Part shown: positions 1 to 64,000 of the stretch, piece after piece | Layout of the letters: each line of letters begins with the position of its first letter | Numbering within the stretch: position 1 is the stretch's first letter | Source of the DNA: Branchiostoma floridae | Taxonomy: Eukaryota > Chordata > Leptocardii > Amphioxiformes > Branchiostomatidae | Assembly: GCF_000003815.2 (NCBI RefSeq) | Contig: NC_049991.1 | Location: forward strand, 387,769 to 451,768 | Length of the DNA: 64,000 nt | Direction of reading: 5' to 3' | Notes under the pieces: generated by a model | The model's input: the letters and a program-made list of their open reading frames with translations, nothing else | What the model was told of the DNA's origin: nothing | Databases searched by the model: none | Program-made: the position numbers and the translations under genes

Positions 1-2476
<2,476 letters not shown>

Positions 2477-27290: not shown

Positions 27291-28566
27291 GAGCTTTATT
27301 GTCATATGTAACTCAGGAAGAGATCAATACAAAGGTTTTTAAACAATATCAATGTCAACAGTAGCCGAAAACGTTTAAAAAATAGGCAGATGCTCTTTTA
27401 AGATACCAGACTTTGTCCTTCCATTAAAGTCTTCTTGTGTCATAAAGCATGGATTACTTGATTGTAGAACAGTGCTCAATGTACAATGTACTACTTTTTG
27501 CTAGCTGCCTCATAGCAATATGAGCAGACTGACATGGTATCAAATGCATGAAATTTCCAATTAAAAAATGTATTACTAATTTATTGAGGAAAATTTTGCT
27601 TTTGGTGAGACTCATACTATTTATATACATATATGATGATGATACAGATAGAATGTTTATCAAGTGCCAATAGTAAAATATATTCTTTTACAAAAGATTA
27701 GGCTGAAATCTGGTAGAATCCTCAATTGAATTGTCAATTCACCACAAATTCACACGATGCTTAAAATCAAGCCTTTCCCTTTCAGATCAAATAACTATAG
27801 AAAAAAAAAAACATTCCACAAAGTCAAACTGCAGACAGCTTAAAACAAAACAGACATGTACAATCCTTCTGTACTGCAATCTGTTAACAACCCACTCACA
27901 GCATGCCTAATTCCTGCACAACTGTTAGCTCCAAGTTACAATCATAGAAATCCATTCTAAAAGCAAGTTGAAATATGGGTCCTTCAAATCAAATAATGGA
28001 TACTACTACTACTACAAATTCAGCATTGCACAATTTGGAATCAAAAGAAATTTACTTAAAAAAATAGTAATTCAAACAAAATAGTAATTGACATGCCGGG
28101 GTCATGCCCTGATGTCATCAGACTAAGTAATGGGAATTTGAGCAACCTGAAAAACACTTTCATCTATTGCCTTGCTGCAAGTCATTGCTGCATTCTGATG
28201 GATTGTAGACATGCTGCAGTCCTGTTGTTTGACAGCAGGACGTCTGGGATGGGGTTTAAGTAAAATCAACAATCAAGTCCTTAGGTTAACTAAGCAATTC
28301 TGTTCTCACTTTAAGACCTCTATCATCATTTAACTCATTTCGACTTTAAAATCTCTTATTTGACATAAGATTGCAACTTGAAAAAGATACGCTTTGCTAC
28401 TGTATCATGCTTTTTAATGATGATGATTCTAACAGGTTCCACTAAGGGATTATTAAAGGTTCATTATTAAAATTTGATGGTATGGTACAAAATCTATAAT
28501 ATTTTAGTATTAATTATAGTCCTAGTGAATATGTAACATTGCACTGTTGTTAAAACTTCTGAATGC
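27275..28566 (-). other. Predicted 3' UTR of the FN3-kringle gene
   Basis: Runs from the stop codon at 28569-28567 to a poly(A) signal AATAAA at 27300-27295. Nothing else is recognised in it. The extent is inferred. Confidence 0.5.
27295..27300 (-). terminator. Candidate poly(A) signal of the FN3-kringle gene
   Basis: The minus-strand AATAAAGCTCATTC lies 1.27 kb after the stop and just before the CA-rich repeat. It is the best-placed signal that I noticed. Confidence 0.45.
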
Positions 28567-28862
28567 TTAGCCACCATTTCTACACTGTTGTATGGCACAG
28601 TACTCATATGTTCCCTCTGCATCTGCATAACACCACGGCTTAGCATCTCCGTCTGGGTTCCTACAATAGTTATGGTCCCCTATACCAAATTCCCCCTGCG
28701 TGTACTCATGTGAACTATACTGGAAGAAGTCAGAGGCACTCCATTTTACACACTGAGAGCCCTTCTCAGTGGTGCTGGCTTGTCCTCGGTAGTCCTCTCC
28801 GTTGCCATGGTAACAATCCTCGTCGTGGCCCTCCTCTGGCGCTGGCGTCGTCGCTGTCTGGC
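28567..28862 (-). CDS. Last coding exon: kringle domain and stop
   Basis: Starts in phase 1 after CCCAG and encodes a short Thr/Pro/Glu-rich lead (QTATTPAPEEGHDED), then a kringle of ~80 residues with all six cysteines: DCYHGNGEDYRG, QCVKW, NYCRNPDGD, PWCY, EYC, QQC. The DGD before PWCY keeps the Asp-x-Asp pair that forms the anionic centre of lysine-binding kringles. Stop TAA at 28569-28567, four residues after the last Cys. Confidence 0.95.
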
Positions 28863-31800
28863 CTGGGATTGAAAGATAAAATTCAGTGCTGTGTCCCAGC
28901 ACAAGACAAGAGGACGTGTTAGTGGGTCATAGGTCAGACTGACCAGGAGAGAGGGAAGTTTAGTCAATGGTGAACTCACAGAAAATTAGTACAACAGTGT
29001 CTACAGGGTTAGCCATTGAGGTTACTGGTACAGTATTGATGTAGTAAAAGGTCACCAAGAGTAATAGATTAAATGTTAGAGCCTTTGTTGAAACCCCAAA
29101 TTTTGCACACGGTACAACAAAATTTTGTGATTTTTTTTACCGAAATAGTACATTTTTGGCTCCTGTACCCTGGAATTACAATCAAGTTACCTGAAATTTG
29201 GTATAGGAGTGCCCTGCACATATGCGTACATGGATTCAAGAACACTTTTGGCATACAGTACAACAAAATGCTCAATTTTGCAATTTTGGGGCTATTTTCA
29301 ACCAAAAAAGTACACTTTTGGCTCTTGTACCCTGGTTTTACAACCAAATGACCTAAATTTTGGTATTGTGGCACACTTAGGTATTTATTCAAAAGACCCA
29401 TGTATCAGTTTGGGCATGAACCACTTCAAAATGATTTATATGGGGATCTTTTTTTTCATTTTCCAATGGCCAGAGGGGTGAACAACCCCTACCTGGAGAC
29501 TGTTCTCTTGCAGGTGCAGGCCTTGACATTTCTATAATTTAATCAAATATGCAGCCAATGACCTAGCCTGAATCAATATCCTGAAGAGGATTCGGCAGCT
29601 AATCAGCAAGCCTGGTGTTATCTGGAAGAGTCCAGTCATGCACGGGAGACCCTTTTATAATTTTGGACTGGGTTGCATATACAAAAGGCCATGTTTTCAG
29701 CGGGAGTATTTCTGGACTGGTCTATTTTGCCATTTTACATGGGGTGTGCTGGAAGAGTCCATTCTTGCACGGAGGGCAGGGGAGGGGGGCATTTTTTAAA
29801 ATTCATTTTTAGACTTTGGTGATAATGTCAAAGTCCTATCTTAGCAAAAGTATTTTTGGACTGCTCCACTTTACATAGGGGTATTATAGGAGGAGTCCAT
29901 TCTTGCACAGATTTTTTTCAAATTCAGTTTTGGACGAGTGATGAAACAAAGTTCCATTTTTTAATGGAAGTGTTTTTGGACTGTTCTATTTTACCTTTTT
30001 ACTCGGGGTGCACTGAAAAGTCCATTCTTGCATTCAATTTTGGGCTAATGTGTGATAAGTCATTTTTAAGCAGAAGTGTACCATTTTTGCACAGGGCTGA
30101 TTTTGGACGGTCTATTGTTGCCTAAGGGAGATGGCTGAAATATGCTGTACTTGCTCTCAAGTAAGTGTCGGCCTTTCTTGTTTAAGCTGATTTCTGTATA
30201 AAATGAAAATGTATCCCAACATATGCAGAAGACAGCTGTACGAAACACCAAGCTGTACAGTACGAACTGGTACAATTATAGTACTGACCAGATTGTAGGG
30301 CATCATCAGGCCTGCCGTTGAAACGATGCACCACAGTCTGTCCATCCCGAGTGCTGCCAGAAGAGCCCCCTACTGGTACTAGAAATGCCTGCCCTCCACT
30401 GGAGCCAGACCCACCACGGTTAGTGATGACTCCTGCCTGGTTAGGGCGAACAACAAACGTTTGGCCACCTTGACCAGTAGTAGAGCCTCCATTGGCTGGA
30501 ACTAGAAAGACCTGCCCATTGGAAGTGGAGCTCCCATCTGTTCTGATGACCACACCTTGTCCTGCGGCGCTCTCTCCGTCAGGCAGAAGAAAAGAGCGCT
30601 GTCCGTTGGCATCGGTCCTGATGACAAATGACTGTCCCGAGGTCAGCCTCGGTCCGGCGTCCCCACCACCGCGCACAATGACTCTGCCTGTACCGCCACT
30701 GGACGGAACTACAGACATGTGGGCAGTGGAGCTGATGCCGGTGGATCCGCTCACACCAACTCTGCCCAAGTCTGGATGGCTGCTAGCTGATGTGCGCACG
30801 CTGATCTGCGGACTCCTGTACTCCTGTCCTGACGCTGTGAAGGCCAGAAGCTGCAGGACGTACTCCGTGTCTGCTTCCAGACCTGTCAGAATGTACTCCG
30901 ACTCATCAACACCAACCTGTAACATACAAAAAATGTACATGTAGATAATGTTCAAATATTTTGAAGACAAGACGACAGTGAGATCAAATGAAACCAAAAA
31001 AATCTTACAACAAATTGTTAGAAATACCAACATAATACGTTTTTTTTTTTGTAAACGTAATGTCTTCATAAGGACTCATTCAGAAAGATTGGATGCATTA
31101 TTTGAGACATCATGTCATGATAACGGCACTGAACTTTAATCCAACACATTCCAGCATATTCAAAACTGAACCATAAATAAACGAGCGGGCTTTTGCGCAT
31201 TCCAAAAACTGTTTAGTGCATTGTTTACTATGTTTCTCCGGCTATTGCTACACATGCATTGGCCTGCAACTTTCTGTGTTGTCGCGAGAAAATAACACTT
31301 CAAACAGAGTGTAACGGATAGCAAGTCCCTTGGGATTCTATTCCCAGTGGAACTTTAATCCAACACAATGATATAATAAGGCTGTTTATCTATGGATTTC
31401 ATATTTACAACGACAAATTTGTATCAATTGGCAGGCACTTACTCAAGGTTAAATTGGCAAATCGGCATGTCAGTAAATGGCTGATAGTCGCGATCAAAAC
31501 ACGGCCCAAAAATGCATCAACCAGCGGCAAATCCGTTCTGCTGTTCTACTATACAGTTATGACGTTCTATGAAACTTTTCATCAGTTGTTTGGTAAGCAA
31601 ATGGTGGCAAAATACATTGTTTGTGAATGGCTCCCAAAAAATATACCCGCAAAACACAGTACAAACTCCCTACAGTACGTCCCCCATGTGGGGCTGTTGG
31701 TTTCGCCGGTGAGATCCGTCCTACTGGCCTTTGGATGTGATCACTTTCATAAATAGGGGCGAATGGGCGTGCTGAAATATGATTCAAAATGGCGCGTGTT

Positions 31801-34800
31801 CGGATTTCCACTGAATTTGTGTAACAAAGCCTTGCCCTGTACTTTAAAGAGGGACACTTCAAGGCATGTTGGTTGTGCTGGATGGACAGTTTATTAATAT
31901 TTCGCTATATTTACTGTGATGATTAATGTGTAATGTGAGGACAAAGAGTAGAATTGCTTGAAATTACAATCGCTGCCCTCTTCCCACGGCTTGATTAACG
32001 GCATGAAAACATACCAGAAGATTGATTGACCTGTCACTGCAACGTGCGATCTTTGCGAGCTCAAACTTACAAGGTTTTAAGTCGTATACCTTACTGGTTT
32101 TGTAAAACACTAAAAGGAATTTGCATACCGGAGCTAGTTTTTGACTGACAGATGGGTTCTGAAAAGTGTTGGATTAAAGTTGCGTTGGATTAAAGTTCAG
32201 TGCCGTTACATGTAAATGTAATTTGAATGCAGTAGACATTTTTAGAAACAGCAGAGCATGATACATGCAGGAATGGGCAAACATGTCACTACTTGCCTCT
32301 ATAGTTTGGGTCTGGTCTTCACCAGCACCGCGGTACAGGATACCATAGCCGTCAACCACATCTACGGAATCTGTCGGCTTCTCCCATTGGATCTTGATGC
32401 TGTTGGGGGTTAAGGCTGTGAAGGTGACCTCACGAGGTGACGCAGACCCTCCAACTGGGACAAAATGACAGATTAAGTCATAAGCACGGGTAACACACTT
32501 CTCTTTACAAATCAACATGACAGGATAAGTTTTAAGTTCAAACTTTTCCGTACAGTTCAATAGAAATCATAAAATTGTTAGGGCAAAGAGATGCTGTAAC
32601 AGTTACAGTTACAACGTAACCCATAACGTTGGAATGGTCATCAGCTCACACTTTGAAATGACCTTCAGGTTGACCTTCAGGTCTTGTTACGTGGGGACCA
32701 TTAAGGAAAAAAAAAGGCTAGTCAAGTAACAGAAAGGTTACCTGATGATCCCCTCTGTGCTCGTGGTGGCAGCATGATTGACAGGCTGCGCTGCCCCTCC
32801 CGTGCCTCTGTGAAGGCCAGGACCCAGATGTTGTACCCCAGGTAGGGGTCCAGGTTCATCAGACTGTACTCTGTCACAGTTGGACCCACCTCTTGCACGT
32901 TCAACATGTTAGTGAGGATGGGGTTGTAAAAGATGCGATAGCCCAGGATGGGTCCTGACAGTCCCGTTGGAGGCTCCCAGTTCAGCCTGATTGTGGAGGG
33001 GTTCACCACTGCCATCTGTACATCAGCAGGGGCTCTGGGTACCTCACCTGAACAGGCAGCAAACGGGACTCAGGTTATTTCAGTGAACAGCACAATGTAG
33101 TCTTGTATGTTGATAATTATGTACAAGCAAAGAAATAATCTTAATGAATTAGCATGCAGATGAAAATATCATTTGTATCATCTGACATCATTTGACTCTT
33201 TTATATGAAACGAAGCAACTTTTTTAAAAGACCAAGGTTGTACTATGTAGGTATGTATGTGCATAGGCCAGGACTGGCCCCTCGCGTAGGGTAATACCGC
33301 CCCTTACGAGGTGATATACCCTTCTTTGGCAGAGTACAAGACGGTGATGCACCATGTCTCCCGTCCTGTTGTACTATAAAATCACCCAATAAATTTGGCT
33401 AACGTAAACTACCAGCCCTCAGTCTGGTCCCAACCACCATGGTGTTCACATCAGTGGAGGCAGCTAATACAGATTAGCAAGTACTAGAGTACTATAAATA
33501 TCACCATAAGCCATATTACTAGGTATCAAAGCTAGTTGAGGTGTGGGGAAGACAGTTACAAGTTGCAAAATATAAGTAGTTCAAACTTGACAGGGGATGG
33601 TCTTTGCTGAGAGGCAGTTCAAACAAGGATTTGAAACTGAAGGCCTTGATACTACATTAACATGCATTGGCATAATACCGGCCGTAAGACTTATACCGGC
33701 CGATAAAAAATAATGGAATTTAAAGAGATCTACACATGCAACAATAGTTATTTCTGAGGTATGCACACTTCAGACATCTAGGTGTCCAATACATCTTTTA
33801 CAAAGCATCGATTGCAATGCATTCGAAGACGACAAGGCGAAAAGTTTTCAGTATCTTTTTCGGGACAGGCAGCTCGTCGTGGGACGAACACACTGTCACA
33901 TTCATTGCCAGATTTGTAGATCATAATTACACATGCTCACGGCACAAGACGAACATGATTCAACAGCAATCTTGAATTTCTGTTGGTGACCTACAACTCA
34001 TGTAAAAGTGTGAAGAACCGTTGCATAATAGCCCGGATCTACGACTGAATGGGCAAAATTGAACGCCATTTTTATATCTACGCTAGCAGTAAAGTGTTAC
34101 GTCACAGCGGTTGTGATGGACAAAAGTTAAATGAAAATTCTTAACAGTATACGTCCGTTTTCTCATGACATTTTGTATGCTCATGCAGGTTTATGTTTTA
34201 TGCATTTACTAACATAAAAGGAAGGAACGTGGAGGATGTATAAAGGTACATAGCGACAGTTAATTGTGCCGTGTTTCTTCCGGCCGGTTTTTGTACTCCC
34301 TCCCAACCACGCGCCCGTTCACCGTGTAATTCCGCGGCGTGTTACAATTACGATATTACGCTTTTAGCAGGACAAGAGTGGCAGAAAAGTTACACAGAAG
34401 AAGTGGCAAGGGTAAGCTATAACAGCAACATGTAACTGGAGAAAATGATGCGTTGACAATTTGTCAAATCAGTATGGCTAGAGAAATCGTCGTAAACGTG
34501 CCGGTATTATGATAATAGATGTTATGCCCAAGCTCTTGAATGTGTGAAAACAAACTGTGAAAACCTGAACTTGGGTTTGATGCTTGCAGCAACTATCTGG
34601 GTCTTTTTTCTGGGTCTGACAATGATTTCTTGAAATATTTGTGAAATCTTGATGTCAGTTATTACCTCCATGAAATGTCATGGAGGTTATATTTTACCCT
34701 GCGTTTGTGTGTGTGTGTGTGTCTGTGTGTGTGTGTGTAAACAAGATAACTCAAGAACGGTTGGGTGGATTGGTTTCATACTTGGTGTGTTGGTAGTGTG

Positions 34801-37800
34801 TGATGAAAGCTGGAAATGATTAGATTTTGGGCCCCCTAGCGACTCCCCTTGGTACTGCAGCGCAACTTCTGGTTTTGCTATCTCGGTGTTCTGAACATGC
34901 TATGGTCACGATTTTTGCGTGTTAGACAGCTCTTGTGCTCAGGAAGAAGTGACATAAGTTTGGGCCCCCTAGCAGCTAGTTCTGGGATAGCAGGGGCATT
35001 TCTGTCAAAAACTTCTGAAGAGGATAACTCAAGAAGGGGACAACGGATTTTCATGATTTTTGGTATATAGGTACCTTAGACAATGTTGTACAGGATGAAA
35101 TACAGATTATGCAAAATAGGAGTAACTTAACATAATTAATGAGGATATTCTATCCTATCAGTTTTTTCAATGTATCTCTTGTTCCAGATATGCTATGGTC
35201 TTGACATTTTGGTGGTAGATAGGTTGCAGTGTCATGACAAAGTGGGGCAAGTTTCAGTCCCCTAACATTCAATTTTGGAACTGCAGGGGCATTTTTGTCA
35301 AGACATTCCAAAGAGGATAACTGCAGAAAGGATTGACGGATTGGCATCATATTAGGCATGCGGGTACCTTAGGCAAAGATGTTCATAATAATATACATGT
35401 TATGCAAATGAGAGCTTAATTTGCATAATTAATGAGGAAATTGTATAATTCAATTGTTTTTAATAACTGGACTTCAATAAATGTAACACATGTTAATTAT
35501 GATGGGTGGAATATAAGCAGATACCAAATATGGTAATGAGAAACTTATTTGCATAATTCATGAAAAAAATTCAAAACTGCTTTATGATTGATGATGGGAA
35601 TTTTATAATTGTGACATGTGTACGTTAGTCAATGATGAACAACACCATGCATAAATTATGTTAATGTTTTAGTCAATTGCATGAAATTTACGAAAGCTCT
35701 AAATTTTCATGGAGGTATGAGGTCGCCGAACTCTAGTTATGCAAATATCTTCCTGTCGTCTGCTGTAATACCAATCCTTTGTTCTTGGTTGCCAGACGGG
35801 TAGAGGTCTCCCACTGGGTCTAAGCCATTTATGATGTTGGGAGCATGTGAGGAGTCAATTTAGCAACTGAGGAGATTATGGTTCTGAACCCTGGGCACAG
35901 ATTTTGGATCTTTAACATTATGTATGATAGTGTGAAGCTTTTGGCAATATTACTACCAAAGATTTATCTGATTGCTAAATCCAGAAATGTACCTGTCATA
36001 CACTTCTCTTCATATTCATAAGCTTTCTGAGTGTGAGTCTTGTTCATCTGCTGTACTGACCTTGTGGGTAAGTCCTGATGGTGAAAGAGTCACTCTGTGG
36101 GTAAGTCCTGATGGTGAAAGAGTCACTCTGTGGCCCCATGCCTGCGGGTGAGAAGGCCAGGACCCAGATGTTGTAGTCCGGGCAGAAGGAGGCGTTTCTA
36201 TGGACCGGCTCTCGTCATCATCTGGACCCTGAACACATGAGAGCATGGATCATCTCACAGACATTAGACACTAGCATGGATCATCTCACAGACATTAGAC
36301 ACTAGCATGGATCATCTCACAGACATTAGACACTAGCATGGATCATCTCACAGACATTAGACACTAGCATGGATCATCTCACAGACATTAGACACTAGCA
36401 TGGATCATCTCACAGACATTAGACACTAGCCCCGGGCTTCATCATTTCCACAGTATTCATCAGCAGTAGCATTTGTCAAATGTTTCAACCAAACTAATTG
36501 CTGATGTCATTGTTTTCCCCAACTTACAGGATAGGAAATACAGCTGACAACCCCATCAAAGACTTTGTACATGATCAAATCTTTTCACTATTGTATAATT
36601 TTCATAGCCCCCATAGCAGGCTTTGTCATCACAGTTGTTTTTTCTTACATACTGATGATGTGATAAATTCAGGAATTTGAACTGTGTTCTGAGAGTCACC
36701 ATTGTTGAAAACTCAGCCATCAGCCAACAAAGTAACAACCAGAGAAGACATGTACGTAGCACAGCCTGCAGTACACTAAGATTTTCCATGTGTCAGAATC
36801 AGCATCATGTGCAGGTGGTGCGGATAATTGCTGCATGAATATACACATGGGTATATAATTATGTCACACCTCCGCCCTTTCTCTGAGGTGAGTTTGCCAA
36901 GAGGATATTTGCTTGTGATGCTCCCCAAAAGAAGAAGCCTGTCCCCAACCCGGGGAATAACAGACCAGCTGGGTGCTGCAACAGGACAAACTCTCAGGAA
37001 CAACAGATGGACTTAAGGATCTATTATAGTATGAATATAGCAAAAAATCAATTTGGGACATTGGGGGATGCTCGGCAACGGCTGATATTACCTGACATGT
37101 GACTACCCTTGTTATTTGTAGATGTGGTAAGCAATCATTGTATTTTTTGCAATGCACATGTAACTGGGACATCACTGGTTTTATTTTATGAGGCATAATT
37201 ACCTGGTAATATATTCTGTAACCAGCTACCCGTCCTCCTGTGGTGGGGGGCATCCACTGCACCCGCATGGTGGTGGCATCCACACGAGCCACCTGCACGT
37301 TTTCAGGTGAAGCAGGCAGACCTAACAGGGCATACCGGTCCTCCTGGTCTGGTCTGGACCCAGAGCTGGGTTCACGGACAACCACGCCTGGGATGATATT
37401 GATCCTGTCCTCTTGTCCTGGGTATGTGGAGCCACCAATGACTGGGGGGAGAAATTGTTTACATCTTAACCTTCAGAACAGTGGGTTCCACCATCTCACT
37501 CCATTGTCAAATGTCAAATGATGTCTAGTATACTACCTACCTACCCTATACCTCAATGAACAATGGAGGCATTGTTTGAGCCTAATTGTTTTGAATGTGT
37601 CTGTTTTTGTTTGTGTTTCCAGATATTGTTGTCACCATAACTTAAGAACCTCTGGATAGCTTGTGATGGAGCCTCAGGAGGTATTGTTTTGAGTATACCT
37701 TTGTGTCTGTCTGTGTTTCTGGATATTATAGTCACCATAACAAGTTAGAAAAAGAACACACACCTTGTCTGTCAATCCGTACATTCATTTTTGCACTGCG

Positions 37801-58800: not shown

Positions 58801-61800
58801 CCGAGAGGTCCGGGGTTCAAATCCGCTTGCCGTGTCACCGATCTTGTGCCCTTGGGAAAGGCACTTTACACGACTTTCCTCACCTAGCTCAGGTGTAAAT
58901 GAGTACATAGCTGCGGCTAGTGGCAGTGACAGGCCTTTGTGGTGGTGACAGGCCATAGGGGCATGTTCGGGCATGACGCACCCGCCATGACACATGAGTC
59001 AGGGGTAGGAGGAACCCCTTGCATCCTTGGTCGGAAGTCCTCCTAGGAGACGCAACTCCAAACAACAACCTGCATCTGCTGGCCNNNNNNNNNNNNNNNN
59101 NNNNNNNNNNNNNNNNNNNNNNNNNNNNNNNNNNNNNNNNNNNNNNNNNNNNNNNNNNNNNNNNNNNNNNNNNNNNNNNNNNNNAATAAATGGAAGAGGC
59201 GAACTAGCCGGCACACTCTGAATGGCTGCAGATCTGTATGTTGTGTTGCAGAATCTGCAAGTGATTGCAGAATCTGCATGTGGTTGCAGAATCTGCAAGT
59301 AATCGCAGAATCTGCATGTGGTTTGCAGAATCTGCAAATGGTTTGCAGAATCTGCAGTCAACTGCAGAATCTGCAGAACTGACCTATCCCGAGGGACCTG
59401 CCGATGTTATCTACGTAATCGTCATCATGTACTATGTCATATTCTAGAATACCAAATTTCAATCTCGAAGTATGTCATAATAATCAATGTTTCCGGATTA
59501 GAGTGTATTCCGGATTAATACATTTACCAAACACAATCATGTATTTATACAACCATATACAATGCACAATGACACTCCTGATCAGCCTGTCATTTTAACC
59601 ACATAGGTGCTACTGGATTACAATTATAGAGAAATTTGCAGACACATTCAGAAATAAAAACACTGGTCTGAAAGTACATAAATGATGCCTTGCTCTGCAT
59701 AAATAAAGACTGCATTTGATTTATGTTAATCATCAGCTACAGTACCTATCTGCAAATCCCCACTGGAGTTATCCTTCTAAAAAGTTCCAAACAAAAAGGC
59801 TCACTGCAGTTCAAAAAAGGCTGCTAGAGGGCCAAACCTACATCACTTGCTCCCTTCACCAATTGCAAGATCTATCCAACACTAAAAAAATAATGAACCT
59901 GGAACCAGGAGAAAATTTAGAGTCTAACTTTGACGCGCCGCTGCAGCACCGTAACTTGCTCCTTGAAGGCCCATTATCAAACTACACCTTCCATTTTACA
60001 ACCCCTACCGATTCACCAGGTGAAACATTTTCAAACTAGACCTTCCTTTTCACAACAGCTACCCAAATAGCAAAAATTGTGAAAATACATCCACAGGTCC
60101 TCGAGTTCTGAGTTCTGACCTACCATACCCACACTACAACTGCTCCGCTCCAACTGAAAGCATAGCCTTCAAACTCAAGAGAATAATCTCCTGCTTAACA
60201 AATATGTCCTAATACCTTCTGCTGCAGTTTGAACATAATACACAGAACTTCTCTCGCCCTCCCCCTCTGCTGAGAAGGCCACTATCCACACAGTGTAAGG
60301 TGTGTTAGGCAGGAGGTCCTGGATAGTGTACTGCCTTGTAGTCTGGTCCAGCTGAACAGTCAGCACAGGTTCATCCTCCGTCTGACAAAGAAACAAACAA
60401 ATGTTACAATAGTCTATAGATGGCTAGTCTATGCCCACATCCAGTTCCAGTACACATGTACACATGTAGAGAGAAACATGTCTGTTACCACCAGGCTTTT
60501 CTTATTCAATATCTGACAGCCTAACATTTTTACACCATCTTAGCAATGCAGGCCTATCTAAATAGGCAGGTGATGTTATGCATATATTCTTAAAATTCAA
60601 AAGCAAGCTTATGTGTTTCCTTACCTGGTAATAGATGACGTAATACTCCACATCTCCACCTGTTGAGGGAGTCTCCCACTCCACTGTGATGGAGGTGGGG
60701 CCACTTGGGGTCAAACGGACACTGCCAGGGGCAACCAGGCACGTTGGGGGCTGATTGAGGGTAAGGTTTGAATTCTTTAATGTAGCTNNNNNNNNNNNNN
60801 NNNNNNNNNNNNNNNNNNNNNNNNNNNNNNNNNNNNNNNNNNNNNNNNNNNNNNNNNNNNNNNNNNNNNNNNNNNNNNNNNNNNNNNNNNNNNNNNNNNN
60901 NNNNNNNNNNNNNNNNNNNNNNNNNNNNNNAAGAGTTATGAGAGCTGTAACATGTTCTATACATGTCATACTTTTCAATAGTCCATATAAATGCACAATT
61001 GCATTACTGAAAATGTGTCTTACCTTCCTGAGTGCTGACAGAAAGAGCAGGGCTTCTCTCTCCCATTCCTTCAGTAGAGAAGGCCACAATCCAGATGGTG
61101 TACTGGGTGTCAGGCAGCAGGTCCCTGATGGTGTAGGGAATGTCACTGGGACTCACTTGTACTCTCATGGTAGGTTCATTCTCAGCCTGGAACAGGACAT
61201 GGAACATGGGAAGTCACAAATAGAAAATGGCCGGTAGGGTCGCTGCTGCACTAGACGATGACATCATGATCAATGGTCTCTGAACTGGGGCAGGATACAT
61301 TACTAAACGGAAGAACAGCTAACAGAGTTTAAAAAATACCTTGTAGAGGATAGTAGTACTGGCCATGCTGGTCAAAGCACAGTGGTAGGCAAACTTGCAC
61401 CAATCACAGCACACCAACAACTCCTACAAACCAATCACATTCATCACAGACTGCCATCTCACCTGGTAATAGATGACGTAATACTCCACATCTCCACCTG
61501 TTGAGGGAGTCTCCCACTCCACTGTGATGGAGGTGGGGCCACTTGGGGTCAAACGGACACTGCCGGGGGCACCAGGGGTTGAAGGAGCTGGGGACACGGA
61601 GGGAAGAATTCACTTTGCTTAAATCTCACAGTCATGTAACAACTAGCAAAAACAGTTTCTGTTTGAAGTAGATAATAACCAAATATGTATCAGCACAAAT
61701 GTCATTGGCATAAACTTGCAATACAGAGTACCTACATTGTTGTTCACATTAAATTGAGCATATGAAGATGATCCCTACCTTCTTCTTGTGTGCTGATAGT

Positions 61801-64000
61801 AAGAGCAGGGCTTCTCTCTCCCATTCCTTCAGTAGAGAAGGCCACAATCCAGATGGTGTACTGGGTGTCAGGCAGCAGGTCCCTGATGGTGTAGGGAATG
61901 TTACTGGGACTCACTTGTACTCTCATGGTAGGTTCATTCTCAGCCTGGAATAGGACATGGAACATGGGAAGTCACAAATAGAAAATGGAGAAAACCAGCG
62001 TCTTGCTTAAAGGCATCCAGAGTGATTGTTTTTGGTCTTTTCAAATTTAATTTTCAAGTCACTTTTACATACAATAATGTTAAATAACATTATCTCATTG
62101 CATATCCACCTTCATTGAGCAAAGATGAGATGTCGTTGGGTGGTGAGAACTTATTGAAAATCTTAGTGCTGCACGCACGAGAACATGACCGATGAGTCCT
62201 GAACGCTTCCAGAGATATCGTCACTTGTTCGAATCAGGTTTCGATTTGCGAACGCGTGAATCAGATTCAATTCGCTTGGTGACCTCACGCATTCAAAAAG
62301 CACCGAAAATTACCGACGGGAAACCGTTAGTGGCTCGATCCTGTACTGATTTATTGAAGGATGTACATTGTGTAATTAATCAAATGGGTTCGTCTGTTGC
62401 ATGTTTGTGCGTCCTTTTAAATGCTGAAAGTATGAAATAATGATACACATGTGCTAGTATGGTGAAGTTAGTGTCAATATCGTACTGATGGTCTCATCCA
62501 GGATATTTTCATTTTTAATGCTCTAAAATTGCTCTGGGCGCCTTAAAGCAGAAGTGCTGACAAAATCTGGATTTTAAGTCAACACAAGGATACATGCACA
62601 ATGTATGTCTTTCATAATTGTCTTCCACAAAAGAAATCAGTACTAGTATGCAGAAATAACAAAGATTTGTGTTACAGCACACCAACAACTCCTACAAACC
62701 AATCACATTCATCACAGACTGCCATCTCACCTGGTAATAGATGACGTAATACTCCACATCTCCACCTGTTGAGGGAGTCTCCCACTCCACTGTGATGGAG
62801 GTGGGGCCACTTGGGGTCAAACGGACACTGCCGGGGGCACCAGGGGTTGAAGGAGCTGGGGACACGGAGGGAAGAATTCACTTTGCTTAAATCTCACAGT
62901 CATGTAACAACTAGCAAAAACAGTTTCTGTTTGAAGTAGATAATAACCAAATATGTATCAGCACAAATGTCATTGGCATAAACTTGCAATACAGAGTACC
63001 TACATTGTTGTTCACATTAAATTGAGCATATGAAGATGATCCCTACCTTCTTCTTGTGTGCTGATAGTAAGAGCAGGGCTTCTCTCTCCCATTCCTTCAG
63101 TAGAGAAGGCCACAATCCAGATGGTGTACTGGGTGTCAGGCAGCAGGTCCCTGATGGTGTAGGGAATGTCACTGGGACTCACTTGTACTCTCATGGTAGG
63201 TTCATTCTCAGCCTGGAACAGGACATGGAACATGGGAAGTCACAAATAGAAAATGGAGAAAACCAGCGTCTTGCTTAAAGGCATCCAGAGTGATTGTTTT
63301 TGGTCTTTTCAAATTTAATTTTCAAGTCACTTTTACATACAATAATGTTAAATAACATTATCTCATTGCATATCCACCTTCATTGAGCAAAGATGAGATG
63401 TCGTTGGGTGGTGAGAACTTATTGAAAATCTTAGTGCTGCACGCACGAGAACATGACCGATGAGTCCTGAACGCTTCCAGAGATATCGTCACTTGTTCGA
63501 ATCAGGTTTCGATTTGCGAACGGGTGAATCAGATTCAATTCGCTTGGTGACCTCACGCATTCAAAAAGCACCAAAAATTACCGACGGGAAACCGTTAGTG
63601 GCTCGATCCTGTACTGATTTATTGAAGGATGTAATTAATCAAATGGGTTCATCTGCTGCATGTTTGTGCGTCCTTTTAAATGCTGAAAGTATGAAATAAT
63701 GATACACATGTGCTAGTATGGTGAAGTTAGTGTCAATATCGTACTGATGGTCTCATCCAGGATATTTTTATTTTAAATGCTATAAAATTGCTCTGGGCGC
63801 CTTAAAGCAGAAGTGCTGTCAAAATCTGGATTTTAAGTCAACTCAAGGAATACATGCACAATGTATGTCTTTCATAATTGTCTTCCACAAAATAAATCAG
63901 TACTAGTATGCAGAAATAACAAAGATTTGTGTTGCTGTATACTTTCTGCCATGGAACAACTGTTATGACATACATGTAAACACATACCTGGTAATAGATG
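28567..64000 (-). CDS. Large multi-FN3 protein with C-terminal kringle (5' end outside window)
   Basis: About 32 exons on the minus strand encode 16 fibronectin type III domains, a ~130-residue Gly/Ser/Thr-rich linker with repeated FVIR/FLVP motifs, and one kringle followed directly by the stop. Fifteen FN3 domains follow a two-exon plan: the first exon carries the PG-P-x-V...W-P---G---GY-I-YQ half, a phase-0 intron follows, and the second exon carries the L-PDT-Y-IWV-AFS half. Domain borders have phase-1 introns. One FN3 (32,742-33,047) is a single exon. There is no transmembrane segment after the kringle, so the protein is probably secreted or matrix-bound. The N-terminus, any signal peptide and further domains lie beyond 64,000. 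Two exons (36,061-36,228 and 60,625-60,750) are frame-disrupted as assembled. I do not recognise a named orthologue. FN3 and kringle domains are certain; function is unknown. Confidence 0.9.
29050..30190. mobile_element. Dispersed element, uninterrupted copy B
   Basis: The same family as the copy at 8.3-12.8 kb, but without the SINE and Harbinger insertions. It lies in the intron between the linker exon and the kringle exon. Internal ~100-bp degenerate repeats (GAGTCCATTCTTGCAC...TTTTGGACTGG). Class unknown. Confidence 0.75.
30289..30916 (-). CDS. Exon: second half of FN3-16 plus repeat linker
   Basis: Phase 0 in, phase 1 out. Encodes VGVDESEYILTGLEADTEYV and LQLLAFTASGQEYRSPQISV (FN3 half), then a low-complexity Gly/Ser/Thr region. 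That region contains imperfect repeats of G-Q-x-FVIRTD...GQ-x-FL(L/V)P...G, ending HRFNGRPDDALQSG. The 628-bp length is far above the ~169 bp of the other second-half exons. The donor CTG|GTCAGT matches the phase of the kringle exon. Confidence 0.92.
31121..32208. mobile_element. 1.09-kb TIR element (TA-flanked, Tc1/mariner-like size class)
   Basis: Perfect 25-bp inverted ends beginning TAACGGCACTGAACTTTAAT; the motif ACTTTAATCCAACAC recurs inside. If TA is the duplicated target, the ends are ACGGCACTG. No transposase recognised. It makes up nearly 80% of the intron between the two FN3-16 exons. Confidence 0.85.
32297..32454 (-). CDS. Exon: first half of FN3-16
   Basis: Encodes VGGSASPREVTFTALTPNSI, KIQWEKPTDSVDVVDGYGIL and YRGAGEDQTQTIE. 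Only a GC donor (ATAGAG|GCAAGT) gives the phase-0 end that joins to the next exon, so this is a predicted GC-AG intron. Confidence 0.88.
32742..33047 (-). CDS. Exon: complete FN3-15 in a single exon
   Basis: Encodes GEVPRAPADVQMAVVNPSTI, RLNWEPPTGLSGPILGYRIF, and LDPYLGYNIWVLAFTEAREG to RGSSG. 306 bp, phase 1 at both ends. It is the only visible domain without the internal phase-0 intron, suggesting intron loss. Confidence 0.93.
33048..36060 (-). other. Intron between FN3-14 and FN3-15
   Basis: Contains the dispersed repeat at 34,657-35,722. The rest, including a GC-rich patch with CCGGCCG motifs near 33,672-33,704 and 34,270, shows no exon that I can support. Confidence 0.5.
34657..35722 (+). 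repeat. Dispersed repeat with CCTCCATGAAAT hairpin start
   Basis: Starts with the palindrome ACCTCCATGAAATGTCATGG AGGT, then (GT)n, AACTCAAGAACGG, GGGCCCCCTAGC twice, ATTTGCATAATTAATGAGG, and ends TTTTCATGGAGGTATGAGG. It is the longest copy of a family with at least four other members in the window. Confidence 0.75.
36061..36228 (-). CDS. Exon: second half of FN3-14, frame-disrupted
   Basis: Begins GPDDDESRSIETP in phase 0. The conserved DYNIWVLAFSPAGMGPQ stretch then lies in another frame, because the exon is ~34 bp shorter there than its paralogues. A 33-bp direct duplication (QSDSFTIRTYP twice) follows. The donor CACAAG|GTCAGT is normal. Either an assembly fault or a genuine disabling deletion. 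Confidence 0.7.
36241..36430. repeat. 31-bp tandem repeat, ~6 units
   Basis: Unit AGCATGGATCATCTCACAGA + CATTAGACACT, essentially perfect. It directly follows the acceptor side of the damaged FN3-14 exon. Confidence 0.93.
37203..37441 (-). CDS. Exon: linker plus first half of FN3-14
   Basis: Longer than its paralogues (239 bp). About 38 linker residues (VIGGSTYPGQEDRINIIPGV onward) precede LPASPENVQVARVDATTMRV and QWMPPTTGGRVAGYRIYYQ. Phase 1 in, phase 0 out. Confidence 0.92.
37530..37750. repeat. Two tandem copies of a ~110-bp repeat
   Basis: Both copies carry GAGGYATTGTTTTGA, TGTGTTTCYRGATATT and GTCACCATAAC. Related to the dispersed GGGCCCCCTA family. Confidence 0.6.
37764..37932 (-). 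CDS. Exon: second half of FN3-13
   Basis: Encodes PVGSTDVSNLEVGPDVSSHP, IRGLEPGVDYVVWIVAFTQE and GEGLRSAKMNVRIDRQG. 169 bp, phase 0 in, phase 1 out. Confidence 0.92.
38516..38640 (-). CDS. Exon: first half of FN3-13
   Basis: Encodes GSTQLGPPADLQVSLLDDES, VLLQWSAPEASDGILGYRLY YQ. 125 bp, phase 1 in, phase 0 out. Confidence 0.92.
38784..38952 (-). CDS. Exon: second half of FN3-12
   Basis: Encodes EAGNEEATTIEVRSNVYSQV, IRELKPDTEYYIWVVGFSAA and GDGRRSQILSVTMESEG. 169 bp. Confidence 0.92.
39050..39101. repeat. (ATC)n microsatellite
   Basis: Runs of CATCAT interrupted by CACCATTAC. Intronic. Confidence 0.9.
39223..39347 (-). CDS. Exon: first half of FN3-12
   Basis: Encodes VPEVPGSPEDIQVSLEDDSS, IRVEWLPPTSGGEVLGYRIN YQ. 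125 bp. Confidence 0.92.
39640..40030 (-). repeat. Dispersed GGGCCCCCTA repeat (inverted copy)
   Basis: Inverse copies of the 34.7-kb element: GCTAGGGGGCCCAAA twice, CTTGAGTTAT, and the closing AACCTCCATG. The (GT)n part is missing. Confidence 0.75.
40063..40231 (-). CDS. Exon: second half of FN3-11
   Basis: Encodes ASRAPTPSFRVAQANERSLT, IPGMASSTTYNIWVVALSAA and GVGQPSPSLTLATPDAG. 169 bp. Confidence 0.92.
41167..41294 (-). CDS. Exon: first half of FN3-11
   Basis: Encodes APQTPGRPRSIRAETVNPTT, MLVQWQEPVRGADLVERYRV YYQ. 128 bp. Confidence 0.92.
41465..41633 (-). CDS. Exon: second half of FN3-10
   Basis: Encodes VAGEPEAVTVEVRPTDRALM, LSGLRPSTSYDIWMTAFSSA and GSSPRTPSVMVRTPEMG. 169 bp. Confidence 0.92.
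41775..42295. repeat. 27-bp minisatellite, ~19 units
   Basis: Unit TGATGGCTGATGTGTGAAGC + TGACTGG, with T/A variation at GGC(T/A)GAT. The period is a multiple of three, so several frames stay open for ~230 codons. It lies in an intron and is not coding. Confidence 0.95.
42305..42435 (-). CDS. Exon: first half of FN3-10
   Basis: Encodes APTPQPPGAPLSIRASAVDS, SSVRVTWRHPTRGGAAAGYK VHYQ. 131 bp. The intron after it holds the 27-bp minisatellite, in which the frame stays open by chance. Confidence 0.92.
42600..42740 (+). pseudogene. Possible retroelement remnant (GIY-YIG / RT C-terminal type)
   Basis: The plus-strand frame reads RILDTEQDYFLRGVKEAIYI KAHQPLL. The E-x(4)-RGVKEAI-I pattern is found at the end of GIY-YIG endonuclease modules in some animal retroelements. 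No catalytic residues are preserved here. Recognition is tentative, resting on one short motif inside an intron of the opposite-strand gene. Confidence 0.35.
43275..43446 (-). CDS. Exon: second half of FN3-9
   Basis: Encodes RVGDDGMRSPTRVIGPDERS, FTLTGLEEDTDYRIYLVPFS and SDRVGTSSPVLSVRTQS. The donor CGA|GTAGGT was preferred over the nearby AG|GTGCCA because only it ends in phase 1, as the next exon needs. Confidence 0.88.
43752..43867 (-). CDS. Exon: first half of FN3-9
   Basis: Encodes APGEPENLQVESTELTSVTI, TWEAPTSGGELEGYRIYYQ. 116 bp. Confidence 0.92.
43994..44162 (-). CDS. Exon: second half of FN3-8
   Basis: Encodes SSEDSSVSQIPVGGDEQTWT, ITGLQADLDYMVWIEAVNSA and GSGPRTDVLNVQTPSEG. 169 bp. 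Confidence 0.92.
44228..44395 (-). repeat. MITE-like repeat, second copy of the ACTGTAAATGCATTTAAG family
   Basis: Both ends are related inverted copies (TACTGTAAATGCA / TGCATTTACAGTA), with ACCGCGAAAATAAAACCAC inside. Intronic. Confidence 0.75.
45024..45145 (-). CDS. Exon: first half of FN3-8
   Basis: Encodes GSLPGAPLNVRASSTEPTSI, VIQWDSPRSGGDVERYQIYY R. 122 bp. Confidence 0.92.
45332..45500 (-). CDS. Exon: second half of FN3-7
   Basis: Encodes RAEDPESVTTLNVRLSTTSY, ILENLQPGQKYQIWIAAYSS and RGISEVTQRIDLRMPQG. 169 bp. Confidence 0.92.
45917..46035 (-). CDS. Exon: first half of FN3-7
   Basis: Encodes GLPGSPEGLRVRAVNPTTAL, LSWQEPSSGADFDGYRVYYQ. 119 bp. Its acceptor (GTGCAG) directly abuts a 29-bp minisatellite, whose units each contain the same CCCTGTAG just upstream. 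Confidence 0.92.
46045..46262. repeat. 29-bp palindrome-containing minisatellite, first array
   Basis: Units ACACCTGTAGCTACAGGGTA + CAAACACTAT; the core CTGTAGCTACAG is a perfect 12-bp palindrome. Some units have CTGGAGCTACAG. The same repeat forms the array at 48,338. Confidence 0.92.
46263..47719. other. Intronic spacer between the minisatellites
   Basis: Includes two related ~100-bp segments (near 46,985-47,060 and 47,398-47,505) sharing CCGTCGCT(A/C)CGTGTCC and GCACGCTGTGACGTT. The minus-strand frame at 46,612-46,872 is not recognisable as a gene. Confidence 0.4.
47720..48235. repeat. ~100-bp tandem repeat, 5 diverged units
   Basis: Each unit contains AGGTTAGGGCGCTCTGCCAC, GACGCACTTTGGTGTAGT, CAATCGGAAAGCAGGATCTC and GGGCGCTCTGACTGAT. 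Confidence 0.88.
48338..48905. repeat. 29-bp palindrome-containing minisatellite, second array
   Basis: About 19 units with core CTGTAGCTACAG and spacer GGTACAAACACTATACAC. Same family as the array at 46,045, ~2 kb away in the same intron. Confidence 0.93.
49163..49331 (-). CDS. Exon: second half of FN3-6
   Basis: Encodes AETETSPSSVETDPTTLQST, IRGLQPDTTYTVWVVTYSPD and GTSPNSPTVSIRTLQEG. 169 bp. Confidence 0.92.
49495..49607 (-). CDS. Exon: first half of FN3-6
   Basis: Encodes GPSAPAFIRASPLDGTSLVV, EWEASESDNVQGYIIYYQ. 113 bp. Confidence 0.92.
50327..50501 (-). CDS. Exon: second half of FN3-5
   Basis: Encodes APGDSTPGFVDTPSSVTSFL, LTGLQPDTTYNVWVLAFSPA and GMSQRSLMKTLTTMQVARG. 175 bp. Confidence 0.92.
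50634..50752 (-). CDS. Exon: first half of FN3-5
   Basis: Encodes EIPGAPGNVQVTPFNATALT, VEWEAPTRGGDFQGYRIYYE. 119 bp. It is preceded (gene direction) by a ~9.5-kb intron, the longest here, which contains an assembly gap and several transposons, so exons may be missing. Confidence 0.92.
50820..51150. repeat. Dispersed repeat with 21-bp GCAGAATTCTGC array
   Basis: A unique-looking part (TTAATCCGGAA...CGAGATTGAAATTTAGTATTC...GGCAGGTCCCTCGGGA) is followed by ~8 units of GCAGAATTCTGCACTTCGGT C. An inverted copy of the whole structure lies at 59,230-59,522. Confidence 0.88.
52236..53503. mobile_element. Foldback element with inverted subterminal GACAAT/GGACAGAT repeats
   Basis: Both arms contain GCAGTAGAGATTGC-type and GATTGTCC / GGACAGATYGCGATC motifs in opposite orientation. 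Weak outer ends AGCCAGTTTCACA and TGTGAACCCACCT are flanked by TAA, which would fit PIF/Harbinger. No transposase seen. The outer boundary is tentative. Confidence 0.55.
53504..58760 (-). other. Long intron interior, no gene recognised
   Basis: Part of the ~9.5-kb intron between FN3-4 and FN3-5. AT-rich; contains a pentanucleotide (CTACT)n microsatellite at ~56,932-56,961. I found no exon or transposon protein that I could support. Confidence 0.45.
58763..59084 (+). mobile_element. tRNA-derived SINE, running into an assembly gap
   Basis: The head has A box TGGCACGATCGGG (58770-58782) and B box GGTTCAAATCC (58814-58824) in a tRNA-like fold. The body has CCCTTGGGAAAGGCACTTTA. It is a different family from the SINE at 8.9 kb. 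The 3' end is lost in Ns. Confidence 0.8.
59085..59184. other. Assembly gap (100 N)
   Basis: Exactly 100 N, the usual size for a gap of unknown length. Confidence 0.99.
59230..59522. repeat. Inverted copy of the GCAGAATTCTGC repeat
   Basis: ~7 units of GCAGAATCTGCATGTGGTT, followed by CCCGAGGGACCTGCCGATGT and TCCGGATTAA, the reverse of 50,820-50,990. The unit is 19-20 bp here (one T lost from the core) against 21 bp in the other copy. Confidence 0.88.
59740..60120 (-). repeat. Decayed GGGCCCCCTA-family repeat
   Basis: GCTGCTAGAGGGCCAAACCT, GCCGCTGCAGCACCG and GAGTTATCCTTCT resemble the 39.64-kb copy, with many changes. Confidence 0.5.
60216..60381 (-). CDS. Exon: second half of FN3-4
   Basis: Encodes TEDEPVLTVQLDQTTRQYTI, QDLLPNTPYTVWIVAFSAEG and EGERSSVYYVQTAAEG. 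166 bp. Confidence 0.92.
60625..60750 (-). CDS. Exon: first half of FN3-4, one-base insertion suspected
   Basis: Very similar to the exons at 61,463 and 62,731 but 126 bp instead of 125. An extra T in CCTGGTTGCCCCTGG (GGTGCC in the paralogues) shifts the frame relative to SVRLTPSGPTSITVEWETPS. It lies 38 bases from an N-gap, so a low-quality base is likely. Confidence 0.75.
60788..60930. other. Assembly gap (143 N)
   Basis: 143 N inside an intron of the FN3 gene, close to the exon with the suspected extra base. Confidence 0.99.
61024..61186 (-). CDS. Exon: second half of FN3-3
   Basis: Encodes AENEPTMRVQVSPSDIPYTI, RDLLPDTQYTIWIVAFSTEG and MGERSPALSVSTQEG. 163 bp, one codon shorter than the near-identical copies at 61,779 and 63,047. 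Confidence 0.92.
61463..61587 (-). CDS. Exon: first half of FN3-3
   Basis: Encodes APSTPGAPGSVRLTPSGPTS, ITVEWETPSTGGDVEYYVIY YQ. Apparently identical to the exon at 62,731. Confidence 0.93.
61779..61944 (-). CDS. Exon: second half of FN3-2
   Basis: Encodes AENEPTMRVQVSPSNIPYTI to ALTISTQEEG. It differs from the copy at 63,047 by Asn for Asp (SNIPY/SDIPY). 166 bp. Confidence 0.93.
62731..62855 (-). CDS. Exon: first half of FN3-2
   Basis: Same protein sequence as the exon at 61,463; it lies in the second unit of a 1.27-kb tandem duplication. Confidence 0.93.
63047..63212 (-). CDS. Exon: second half of FN3-1 (first complete exon in view)
   Basis: Encodes AENEPTMRVQVSPSDIPYTI to ALTISTQEEG. 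Phase 0 in, phase 1 out. Confidence 0.93.
63988..64000 (-). CDS. Partial exon at right edge: first half of FN3-1
   Basis: Only the last 13 bases (CATCTATTACCAG, IYYQ) and the donor GTATGTG are inside the window. The match to the other first-half exon ends shows that the gene continues to the right. Confidence 0.8.

What the first reader, a model, noticed from the sequence alone, without database searches (positions are those of the whole stretch)
28567..64000. Unfamiliar architecture: at least 16 FN3 domains, a repeat linker and one C-terminal kringle
I know of no standard family combining a long FN3 array with a terminal kringle. The exon design is strikingly regular: a phase-0 intron in the middle of almost every FN3 and phase-1 introns between them. 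The kringle ends the protein, and its DGD motif suggests possible lysine binding. This may be a lineage-specific product of domain shuffling.
Basis: partly seen in the sequence, partly recalled or inferred. Interest (0 to 1): 0.75.

Follow-up and report, generated by a model that had tools for sequence, protein, structure and literature searches.

The report
Galaxin–FN3-array–kringle giant extracellular protein gene
The finding is the tail end of one very large gene, probably from a lancelet, that appears to encode a secreted protein made of cysteine-rich galaxin-like repeats, a long and recently lengthened chain of fibronectin type III domains, and one kringle domain at the tip; a second gene on the same chromosome has much the same plan, so the combination is unlikely to be a gene-joining mistake.

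Summary
On the minus strand, 64000→28567, lie 31 exons: 15 whole FN3 domains plus half of a 16th, a Gly/Ser-rich repeat linker, and one C-terminal kringle ending in TAA. Splice phases are as described, with two frame flaws (domains 4 and 14).

The window holds only the 3' part. Adjoining sequence shows 38 FN3 domains in all, preceded by five exons of galaxin-like dicysteine repeats and a candidate signal-peptide exon. A paralogue 16 Mb away has galaxin-like repeats, VWC, six FN3 and a 69%-identical kringle. Its FN3s match domains 1–3, the middle and 37–38 by tree or best BLAST, so the middle was expanded, partly very recently.

Reading: a secreted matrix or adhesive protein with a disulphide-rich head, an FN3 spacer and a kringle docking tip. 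The kringle keeps the acidic and aromatic lysine-site residues but not the basic ones, as in plasminogen K5. The FN3 array is nearly lysine-free (13 K, 198 R in 3590 residues). No transcript was available, function is inferred, and an in-genome lysine control could not be run. Galaxin+FN3 is in print; I found nothing adding a kringle.

The parts
28567..28862 (-). Kringle exon (K), C-terminal, enters phase 1, ends in TAA
   Evidence: PF00051 E 1.1e-21; paralogue 69% over residues 33-93; pN 0.186 vs pS 0.941
28413..28418 (-). candidate poly(A) signal ATTAAA about 150 bases after the stop
   Evidence: hexamer match only
30289..30916 (-). exon B16L: second half of FN3 16 plus Gly/Ser-rich linker with GQxFVIR / GQxFLVP repeats; no lysine in the linker
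   Evidence: one match in the whole genome, itself
32297..32454 (-). exon A16: first half of FN3 16; GC donor (GAG|GCAAGT)
32742..33047 (-). exon AB15: FN3 15 in one exon, no mid intron
36061..36228 (-). exon B14: second half of FN3 14, about 28 bases short and out of frame
37203..37441 (-). exon A14: about 30-residue spacer plus first half of FN3 14
37764..37932 (-). exon B13 (FN3 13)
38516..38640 (-). exon A13 (FN3 13)
38784..38952 (-). exon B12 (FN3 12)
39223..39347 (-). exon A12 (FN3 12)
40063..40231 (-). exon B11 (FN3 11)
41167..41294 (-). exon A11 (FN3 11)
41465..41633 (-). exon B10 (FN3 10)
42305..42435 (-). exon A10 (FN3 10)
43275..43446 (-). exon B9 (FN3 9)
43752..43867 (-). exon A9 (FN3 9)
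43994..44162 (-). exon B8 (FN3 8)
45024..45145 (-). exon A8 (FN3 8)
45332..45500 (-). exon B7 (FN3 7)
45917..46035 (-). exon A7 (FN3 7; a second acceptor 6 bases upstream is possible)
49163..49331 (-). exon B6 (FN3 6)
49495..49607 (-). exon A6 (FN3 6)
50327..50501 (-). exon B5 (FN3 5)
50634..50755 (-). exon A5 (FN3 5)
60216..60381 (-). exon B4 (FN3 4)
60625..60750 (-). exon A4 (FN3 4), 38 bases from the 143-N gap 60788-60930; one base out of frame as assembled
61024..61186 (-). exon B3 (FN3 3)
61463..61587 (-). exon A3 (FN3 3), part of the recent tandem block
61779..61944 (-). exon B2 (FN3 2), recent tandem block
62731..62855 (-). exon A2 (FN3 2), recent tandem block
63047..63212 (-). exon B1: second half of the first FN3 in the window; its first half is hit at 64110-63988, across the window end

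Best explanation
The feature is the 3' part of one gene for a giant secreted extracellular protein: signal peptide, about 395 residues of galaxin-like dicysteine repeats, 38 FN3 domains, a Gly/Ser-rich repeat linker and one C-terminal kringle. It is one of two paralogues in the genome; their ancestor had about six FN3 (3+1+2), and the single middle FN3 was multiplied here to about 33, with roughly ten modules copied very recently. Most likely it works as a matrix or adhesive tether: the disulphide-rich head fixes it in a matrix, the FN3 chain is an extensible spacer, and the kringle at the free tip docks onto amine (lysine-type) groups of a partner. SHOWN: exon order, domain identity, phase agreement at the junctions read, the paralogous kringle with FN3 upstream, recent module copying, constraint on the kringle, lysine scarcity of the array. 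INFERRED: one transcript, secretion, head anchoring, kringle ligand, trans-acting docking, the 3+1+2 ancestor.
For: Domain HMMs and Pfam. Phases chain from the first galaxin exon into FN3-1 (read by eye), through the in-window exons (flaws at A4 and B14) and from linker into kringle. A looser scripted test over the 75 half-domains: 68 of 75 have a donor where it looked, and all 75 an in-phase AG nearby; six of the seven donor exceptions read well by eye. Candidate signal-peptide exon MKVNIFSLAFVCVSV with phase-1 donor. Paralogue on C13:16.43-16.457 Mb, one strand: galaxin-like exons (BLAST to gene 1's; best of those near the VWC E 1.2e-13), VWC, six FN3, kringle. FN3 tree pairs g2_2/g1_2 98/90, g2_5/g1_37 100/99, g2_6/g1_38 96/88, the only three starred forks. 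Kringle pN 0.186 against pS 0.941 over 82 codons. Ten near-identical A halves, 92.7-100%. Lysine site: acidic pair, Trp, two Tyr present, Arg70 to Thr and Arg34 to Ser. FN3 array 13 K against 198 R.
Against: No transcript or protein evidence. Domain 14 is out of frame and domain 4 has an extra base near a gap, so the array could be decaying, or these could be assembly errors. One donor beyond the window (second half at C13:478,289) stayed unresolved. The gene-1 galaxin exons are not among the 10 matches of the genome-wide single-exon search with PF24748, and exon 1 alone is below the Pfam cut-off. In gene 2 one junction before FN3-1 does not fit as read: the third VWC piece leaves in phase 0 and FN3-1 enters in phase 1, so an exon between them was missed or the model is wrong there. 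Gene 2 has VWC pieces that were not seen in gene 1. The signal peptide is a hydrophobicity guess. No ligand, tissue or localisation is known. AlphaFold on the kringle alone was useless (pLDDT 42.7).
Confidence: 0.6

Rival explanations
1. The kringle exon (or the galaxin exons) belongs to a neighbouring gene, and the combination is a gene-model fusion, as reported for many lancelet architectures.
For: PMC4967905 (passages read) argues that many lancelet domain combinations are prediction errors; no transcript here.
Against: Phase-1 donor meets phase-1 acceptor with nothing convincing as a first exon in the 1426-base intron; galaxin exons chain in phase into FN3-1; a diverged paralogue with saturated synonymous sites keeps galaxin-like repeats, FN3 and kringle in the same order and orientation.
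Confidence: 0.07
2. The gene is a decaying pseudogene or a partly mis-assembled locus; FN3 number and the frame breaks reflect assembly of a polymorphic tandem array.
For: Frame breaks in A4 and B14, N gaps inside the array, perfect 31-bp and 33-bp tandem repeats at B14.
Against: Of the 31 in-window exons 29 read cleanly and one of the two flawed ones lies near a gap; open half-domains with usable splice sites continue for about 30 kb more, though exon-by-exon frames were not checked there as fully; the kringle is under strong constraint; the domain-14 module is phase 1-1 and can be skipped without shifting the frame.
Confidence: 0.15
3. The kringle works in coagulation/fibrinolysis-like proteolysis, as in plasminogen or tPA: a scaffold that brings a protease to lysine-rich matrix.
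For: Best single-kringle match is tPA kringle 2 (84.1 bits), then urokinase (78.4), KREMEN1 (71.9), apolipoprotein(a) (70.6) and plasminogen K4 (68.7).
Against: No protease domain follows: the kringle ends the protein. 150 kringle matches over the cut-off occur in this genome, and in print lancelet kringles sit in SRCR-LDLRA-trypsin proteins and in adhesion GPCRs alike (passages), so kringle alone does not point to proteolysis. The basic half of the lysine site is absent.
Confidence: 0.1
4. Lysine scarcity is a chance property of this FN3 lineage and has nothing to do with the kringle.
For: Human PTPRF FN3 domains are also lysine-poor (7 K, 27 R in 381 residues); all array copies descend from few ancestors; gene 2, with the same kind of kringle, is less depleted (7 K, 41 R in 579).
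Against: Domains as little as 21% identical all stay near zero; R/K exchange between domains is 12 RK to 134 RR pairs, ratio 0.09 against about 0.79 expected from BLOSUM62; 10 lysine codons against 53.8 expected from base composition.
Confidence: 0.4

Closest known systems
Usherin (USH2A) and large sponge galaxin-FN3 proteins
   Same: FN3 domains together with a dicysteine, galaxin-like region (PMC12419799 passage: about 5000-residue sponge proteins with FN3, laminin EGF and a 200-residue galaxin-like part; PMC4878875 passage, for the paired cysteines of usherin; its FN3 arrays recalled).
   Different: No kringle mentioned in those passages. Here galaxin repeats come first and a kringle last. 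Laminin domains, membrane span and PDZ-binding tail of usherin (recalled) were not seen; only selected ORFs of the 5' region were scanned.
Lancelet tenascin
   Same: Dozens of FN3 domains in one extracellular protein (35 in B. floridae, 41 in B. belcheri; PMC11401434 passages).
   Different: Tenascin ends in a fibrinogen-related domain and carries RGD motifs; here a kringle ends the protein and no RGD occurs in the window part.
Fibronectin
   Same: FN3 modules of two exons with phase-1 borders (recalled).
   Different: No FN1 or FN2 module in the window segments; PMC5006582 (passages) says no fibronectin gene was detected in cephalochordates.
Plasminogen/tPA-type kringle proteins
   Same: Kringle family, six cysteines, acidic pair and aromatic residues of the lysine site.
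   Different: No protease domain; basic residues of the site missing, as in plasminogen K5 (L70 there, T here).
Apolipoprotein(a)
   Same: A coding array of near-identical tandem modules (KIV2 present in 3 to over 40 copies: PMC11555715 passage).
   Different: There the kringle is the amplified module; here FN3 is amplified and the kringle is single. Copy-number variation was not tested here.

Membership tests
FN3-array protein | tandem PF00041 domains | tested here: met
Kringle (PF00051) | whole-domain match over the curated cut-off and six cysteines | tested here: met
   77.3 bits against 34.3; six Cys in 85 residues
Lysine-binding kringle (plasminogen type) | acidic pair D54/D56 | tested here: met
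   alignment against Table 1 of PMC11231438 (passage)
Lysine-binding kringle (plasminogen type) | aromatic W61, Y/W71, Y/F63 | tested here: met
   W, Y, Y
Lysine-binding kringle (plasminogen type) | basic R70 (and R34 in K1) | tested here: not met
   T and S at these places; K5 has L70
Galaxin-like repeat protein (PF24748) | dicysteine repeats over the curated cut-off | tested here: met
   cut-off 28 bits: joined exons 3-5 of gene 1 51.5, exon 2 29.7; exon 1 alone 23.1, below it; none of them appears in the six-frame genome search
Tenascin | C-terminal fibrinogen-related domain | tested here: not met
   kringle then stop
Tenascin | tenascin-type EGF repeats before FN3 | tested here: inconclusive
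   galaxin exons sit directly before FN3-1, but only selected ORFs were scanned
Fibronectin | FN1 and FN2 modules | tested here: inconclusive
   none in the window segments; 5' region not scanned exhaustively
Usherin | laminin domains, transmembrane span, PDZ-binding C-terminus | tested here: inconclusive
   C-terminus is a kringle and stop, so a membrane span with tail after the FN3 array is not met; laminin domains not searched exhaustively
Usherin | FN3 array plus dicysteine region | tested here: met
Kringle serine proteases | trypsin domain after the kringle | tested here: not met
   TAA four residues after the last kringle cysteine

The most novel reading that the evidence does not exclude
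A two-gene family of galaxin-FN3-kringle matrix proteins in which the FN3 spacer has been purged of lysine so that the lysine-type kringle at its tip cannot bind its own chain and is free for partners; in the window's gene the spacer is lengthened by ongoing tandem copying of a ~1.3-kb two-exon module, so that its length should differ between individuals.
Probability: 0.2. Interest if true: 0.72.

Novelty: new variant of a known kind. Interest (0 to 1): 0.52.

Why it matters
Lancelet 'new domain combinations' are disputed as annotation errors (PMC4967905, passages). Here a combination is supported by splice phases and by a diverged paralogue that keeps it, and the 3+1+2 comparison suggests how a long FN3 array grew from one middle module by 1-1 phase duplication. 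The lysine-poor spacer beside a lysine-type kringle is a testable idea of self-avoidance. If the copy number varies, it would be a coding length polymorphism comparable to the kringle repeats of apolipoprotein(a).

Tried and rejected
Separate gene for the kringle: the 1426-base intron was scanned for first exons. It holds 11 ATG-started ORFs of 20 or more codons (some nested); several have phase-1 GTs, but none looks like a signal-peptide exon with a good donor. The longest (starting at 29401) resembles a repeat also seen in ORFs near 8.4–8.8 kb and beyond the window. Judged unlikely, not excluded.

Tenascin, fibronectin and kringle-protease membership: see the membership table. RGD, KGD and LDV motifs: none in the window part; one NGR and one DGR occur. 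Histidine is also scarce in the array (0.44%) but no control was counted, so I make no claim on it.

Kringle structure: AlphaFold without an alignment gave pLDDT 42.7; no fold search was run on it.

The C1:7.46 Mb galaxin locus has no FN3 half at E<0.1 within 8 kb.

In-genome lysine control: the PF00041 search of the own genome did not complete in eleven tries, so the control rests on four PDB proteins: PTPRF 4 of 4 printed domains, PTPRD 4 of 5, PTPRS 3 of 3, titin 3 of 16. Background frequencies for the RK/RR expectation were recalled.

Full report
WHAT IS IN THE WINDOW. The gene is on the minus strand and runs out of the window at base 64000. HMMs built from its own exons (so partly circular) find 15 first-half and 16 second-half FN3 exons in strict alternation, all at E≤3.6e-11; the best plus-strand hit is E 0.11 and the best hit in reversed sequence E 0.17. 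Pfam, which is independent, gives fn3 and Kringle. Splice sites were read by eye and checked by script: 31 exons, 30 introns, 29 GT–AG and one GC–AG (GAG|GCAAGT, domain 16); one search prints one acceptor one base off (B14), corrected. The mid-domain intron is phase 0 and follows the '..YYQ' strand in 13 of 15 complete domains; domain 16 has it 11 codons later, domain 15 has none. Borders between domains are phase 1. After FN3 16 the same exon continues into a Gly/Ser-rich linker with GQxFVIR and GQxFLVP repeats, leaves in phase 1, and the kringle exon enters in phase 1 and ends in TAA.

FLAWS. Exon A4 has one base too many, close to a 143-N gap. Exon B14 is about 28 bases short and shifts the frame; perfect 31-bp and 33-bp tandem repeats adjoin or overlap it. 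The domain-14 module is phase 1 at both ends, so skipping it restores the frame. Whether these are assembly errors or real alleles is open.

BEYOND THE WINDOW. The window is C13:387769–451768 of an unnamed 513,431,437-base genome in 431 contigs. The size fits a lancelet such as Branchiostoma floridae (recalled, not proven). The next 80 kb were fetched. Scanning window plus 80 kb gives 38 A and 37 B halves, alternating except for one missing B that falls in a 1108-N gap: 38 FN3 in all. A scripted test finds an in-phase AG within 60 bases upstream or 15 inside for all 75 halves (a lenient test), GT or GC right at the core end in 33 of 38 A halves, and an in-phase GT near the end in 35 of 37 B halves. 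Of the seven donor exceptions, three are in-window and already read (domains 15, 16 and the linker exon). Three more read well by eye: domains 1 and 2 have phase-2 mid introns and domain 4 a phase-0 donor one codon later. One (second half at 478,289) stays unresolved. Domain 3 proves to be one exon, its 'GT' being coding. Before FN3-1 lie five exons of dicysteine repeats that match Galaxin_repeat PF24748: 51.5 bits for exons 3–5 joined, 29.7 for exon 2 and 23.1 for exon 1, cut-off 28. Their phases chain correctly, 1-2, 2-2, 2-0, 0-2, 2-1, into FN3-1 (read by eye). An exon at C13:493,121–493,076, MKVNIFSLAFVCVSV with a phase-1 donor, is a candidate signal peptide; it was one of two candidates that met a hydrophobicity rule.

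PARALOGUE. The genome has many kringles: 150 of 528 candidates were scored and all 150 pass the Pfam cut-off. The kringle nearest to ours is at C13:16,457,452, 69% identical over residues 33–93; the next are at 47% and 46%. Upstream of it, on the same strand, lie six FN3 domains, VWC pieces (two over the Pfam cut-off, one below it) and galaxin-like exons at 16,426–16,441 kb, recognised by BLAST against gene 1's galaxin exons (best E 1.2e-13) and not tested by Pfam. Further up, at 16,413,689–16,415,191, are lysine-richer galaxin exons that do pass Pfam but may be another gene. Phases read in gene 2: last galaxin exon out 1, second VWC piece 1-1, third VWC piece 1-0, FN3-1 in 1, kringle in 1; the third VWC piece and FN3-1 do not fit, so an exon there was missed or the model is wrong there. 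In a tree of 35 FN3 domains (29 of gene 1, with one representative of the recent block; 23 of 32 inner forks open, bootstrap not settled) the only three starred forks are g2_2 with g1_2 (98/90), g2_5 with g1_37 (100/99) and g2_6 with g1_38 (96/88). By BLAST g2_1 and g2_3 are best with g1_1 and g1_3, and g2_4 with a middle domain; g2_6's best BLAST hit is g1_15, not g1_38. The simplest history is an ancestor with 3+1+2 FN3 and expansion of the fourth in gene 1. Between the two kringles (82 codons) pS is 0.941, saturated, and pN 0.186. The gene-2 kringle has two exons, ours one. The linker has one match genome-wide, itself.

RECENT GROWTH. In C13:448–462 kb, ten A halves are 92.7–100% and eight B halves 94.6–100% identical to a reference copy in the window, the reference counted. 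In the window a 1269-bp unit is repeated at 98.3%. A2 and A3 have no difference; B1 and B2 differ by one nonsynonymous base.

KRINGLE SITE. Compared with Table 1 of PMC11231438 (passages read), the kringle keeps D54, D56, W61, Y63 and Y71 but has T for R70 and S for R34 (alignments). The paralogue has the same residues at the acidic, aromatic and 70 positions. Plasminogen K5, which has L70, binds the lysine analogue more weakly than K1. Best single-kringle match in the PDB is tPA kringle 2, 84.1 bits.

LYSINE. FN3 halves of gene 1: 13 K and 198 R in 3590 residues; without near-identical copies 12 K and 172 R in 2926; gene 2: 7 K and 41 R in 579; galaxin part 8 K and 30 R in 395; kringle 3 K and 3 R in 85; linker 0 K and 12 R in 176. 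Over the window exons (kringle included, A4 and B14 left out, 1708 codons) 10 lysine codons stand against 53.8 expected from base composition. Between the 14 aligned domains, RK pairs are 12 and RR pairs 134 (pairs among the three near-identical ones left out), against an expected ratio near 0.79. Controls: PTPRF 1.84%, PTPRS 2.89%, PTPRD 4.96%, titin 7.48% lysine. For the window part (7 K, 104 R in 1718 residues) against the lowest control, PTPRF, Fisher p is 0.007 for lysine share and 0.02 for K:R, so that contrast is modest. An in-genome control was not obtained.

PRINT. Eight searches combining kringle with FN3, amphioxus, lancelet, domain shuffling, domain combination or galaxin showed no description of this architecture; searches returned no paper, the others were seen as listings. 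I opened passages, never a whole text, of 13 papers; two of them, PMC11231438 and PMC11555715, came from a ninth search on the lysine site. PMC11788884, a domain-shuffling survey, names kringle only with Gla in the passages seen; PMC2246102 reports kringles in lancelet adhesion GPCRs. For galaxin with FN3: PMC12419799; for galaxin and usherin: PMC4878875 and PMC6824150. The library is open-access only, and NCBI gene predictions could not be consulted, so an automatic gene model of this protein may exist.

VERDICT. The gene is a galaxin–FN3–kringle mosaic with a paralogue. Function as a matrix tether with a docking kringle is inference.

Noticed in passing
window 1-2008, minus strand: Exons reading like ribosomal protein S9 (name recalled; the 690-998 ORF gave a Pfam S4 domain, E 1.7e-7).
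   Followed up: partly
window 16722-17551, plus strand: A DnaJ domain (E 1.6e-28) and a cysteine-string-like exon, reading like DNAJC5 (name recalled).
   Followed up: partly
whole genome G000: Kringle matches are very numerous: all 150 scored of 528 candidates lie above the Pfam cut-off.
   Followed up: partly
window 41788-42290: A 27-bp tandem repeat, 18.6 copies, 97% matches, lies in the intron right after exon A10.
   Followed up: no
window 36061-36430: A perfect 31-bp x6.1 tandem repeat just before exon B14 and a perfect 33-bp duplication inside its 3' end, at the frame break.
   Followed up: partly
L040 (C1:7456001-7464000): Dicysteine-rich, galaxin-like ORFs without FN3 halves at E<0.1 within 8 kb.
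   Followed up: partly
window 32296 (intron A16-B16L): GC-AG intron with the consensus donor GAG|GCAAGT.
   Followed up: no
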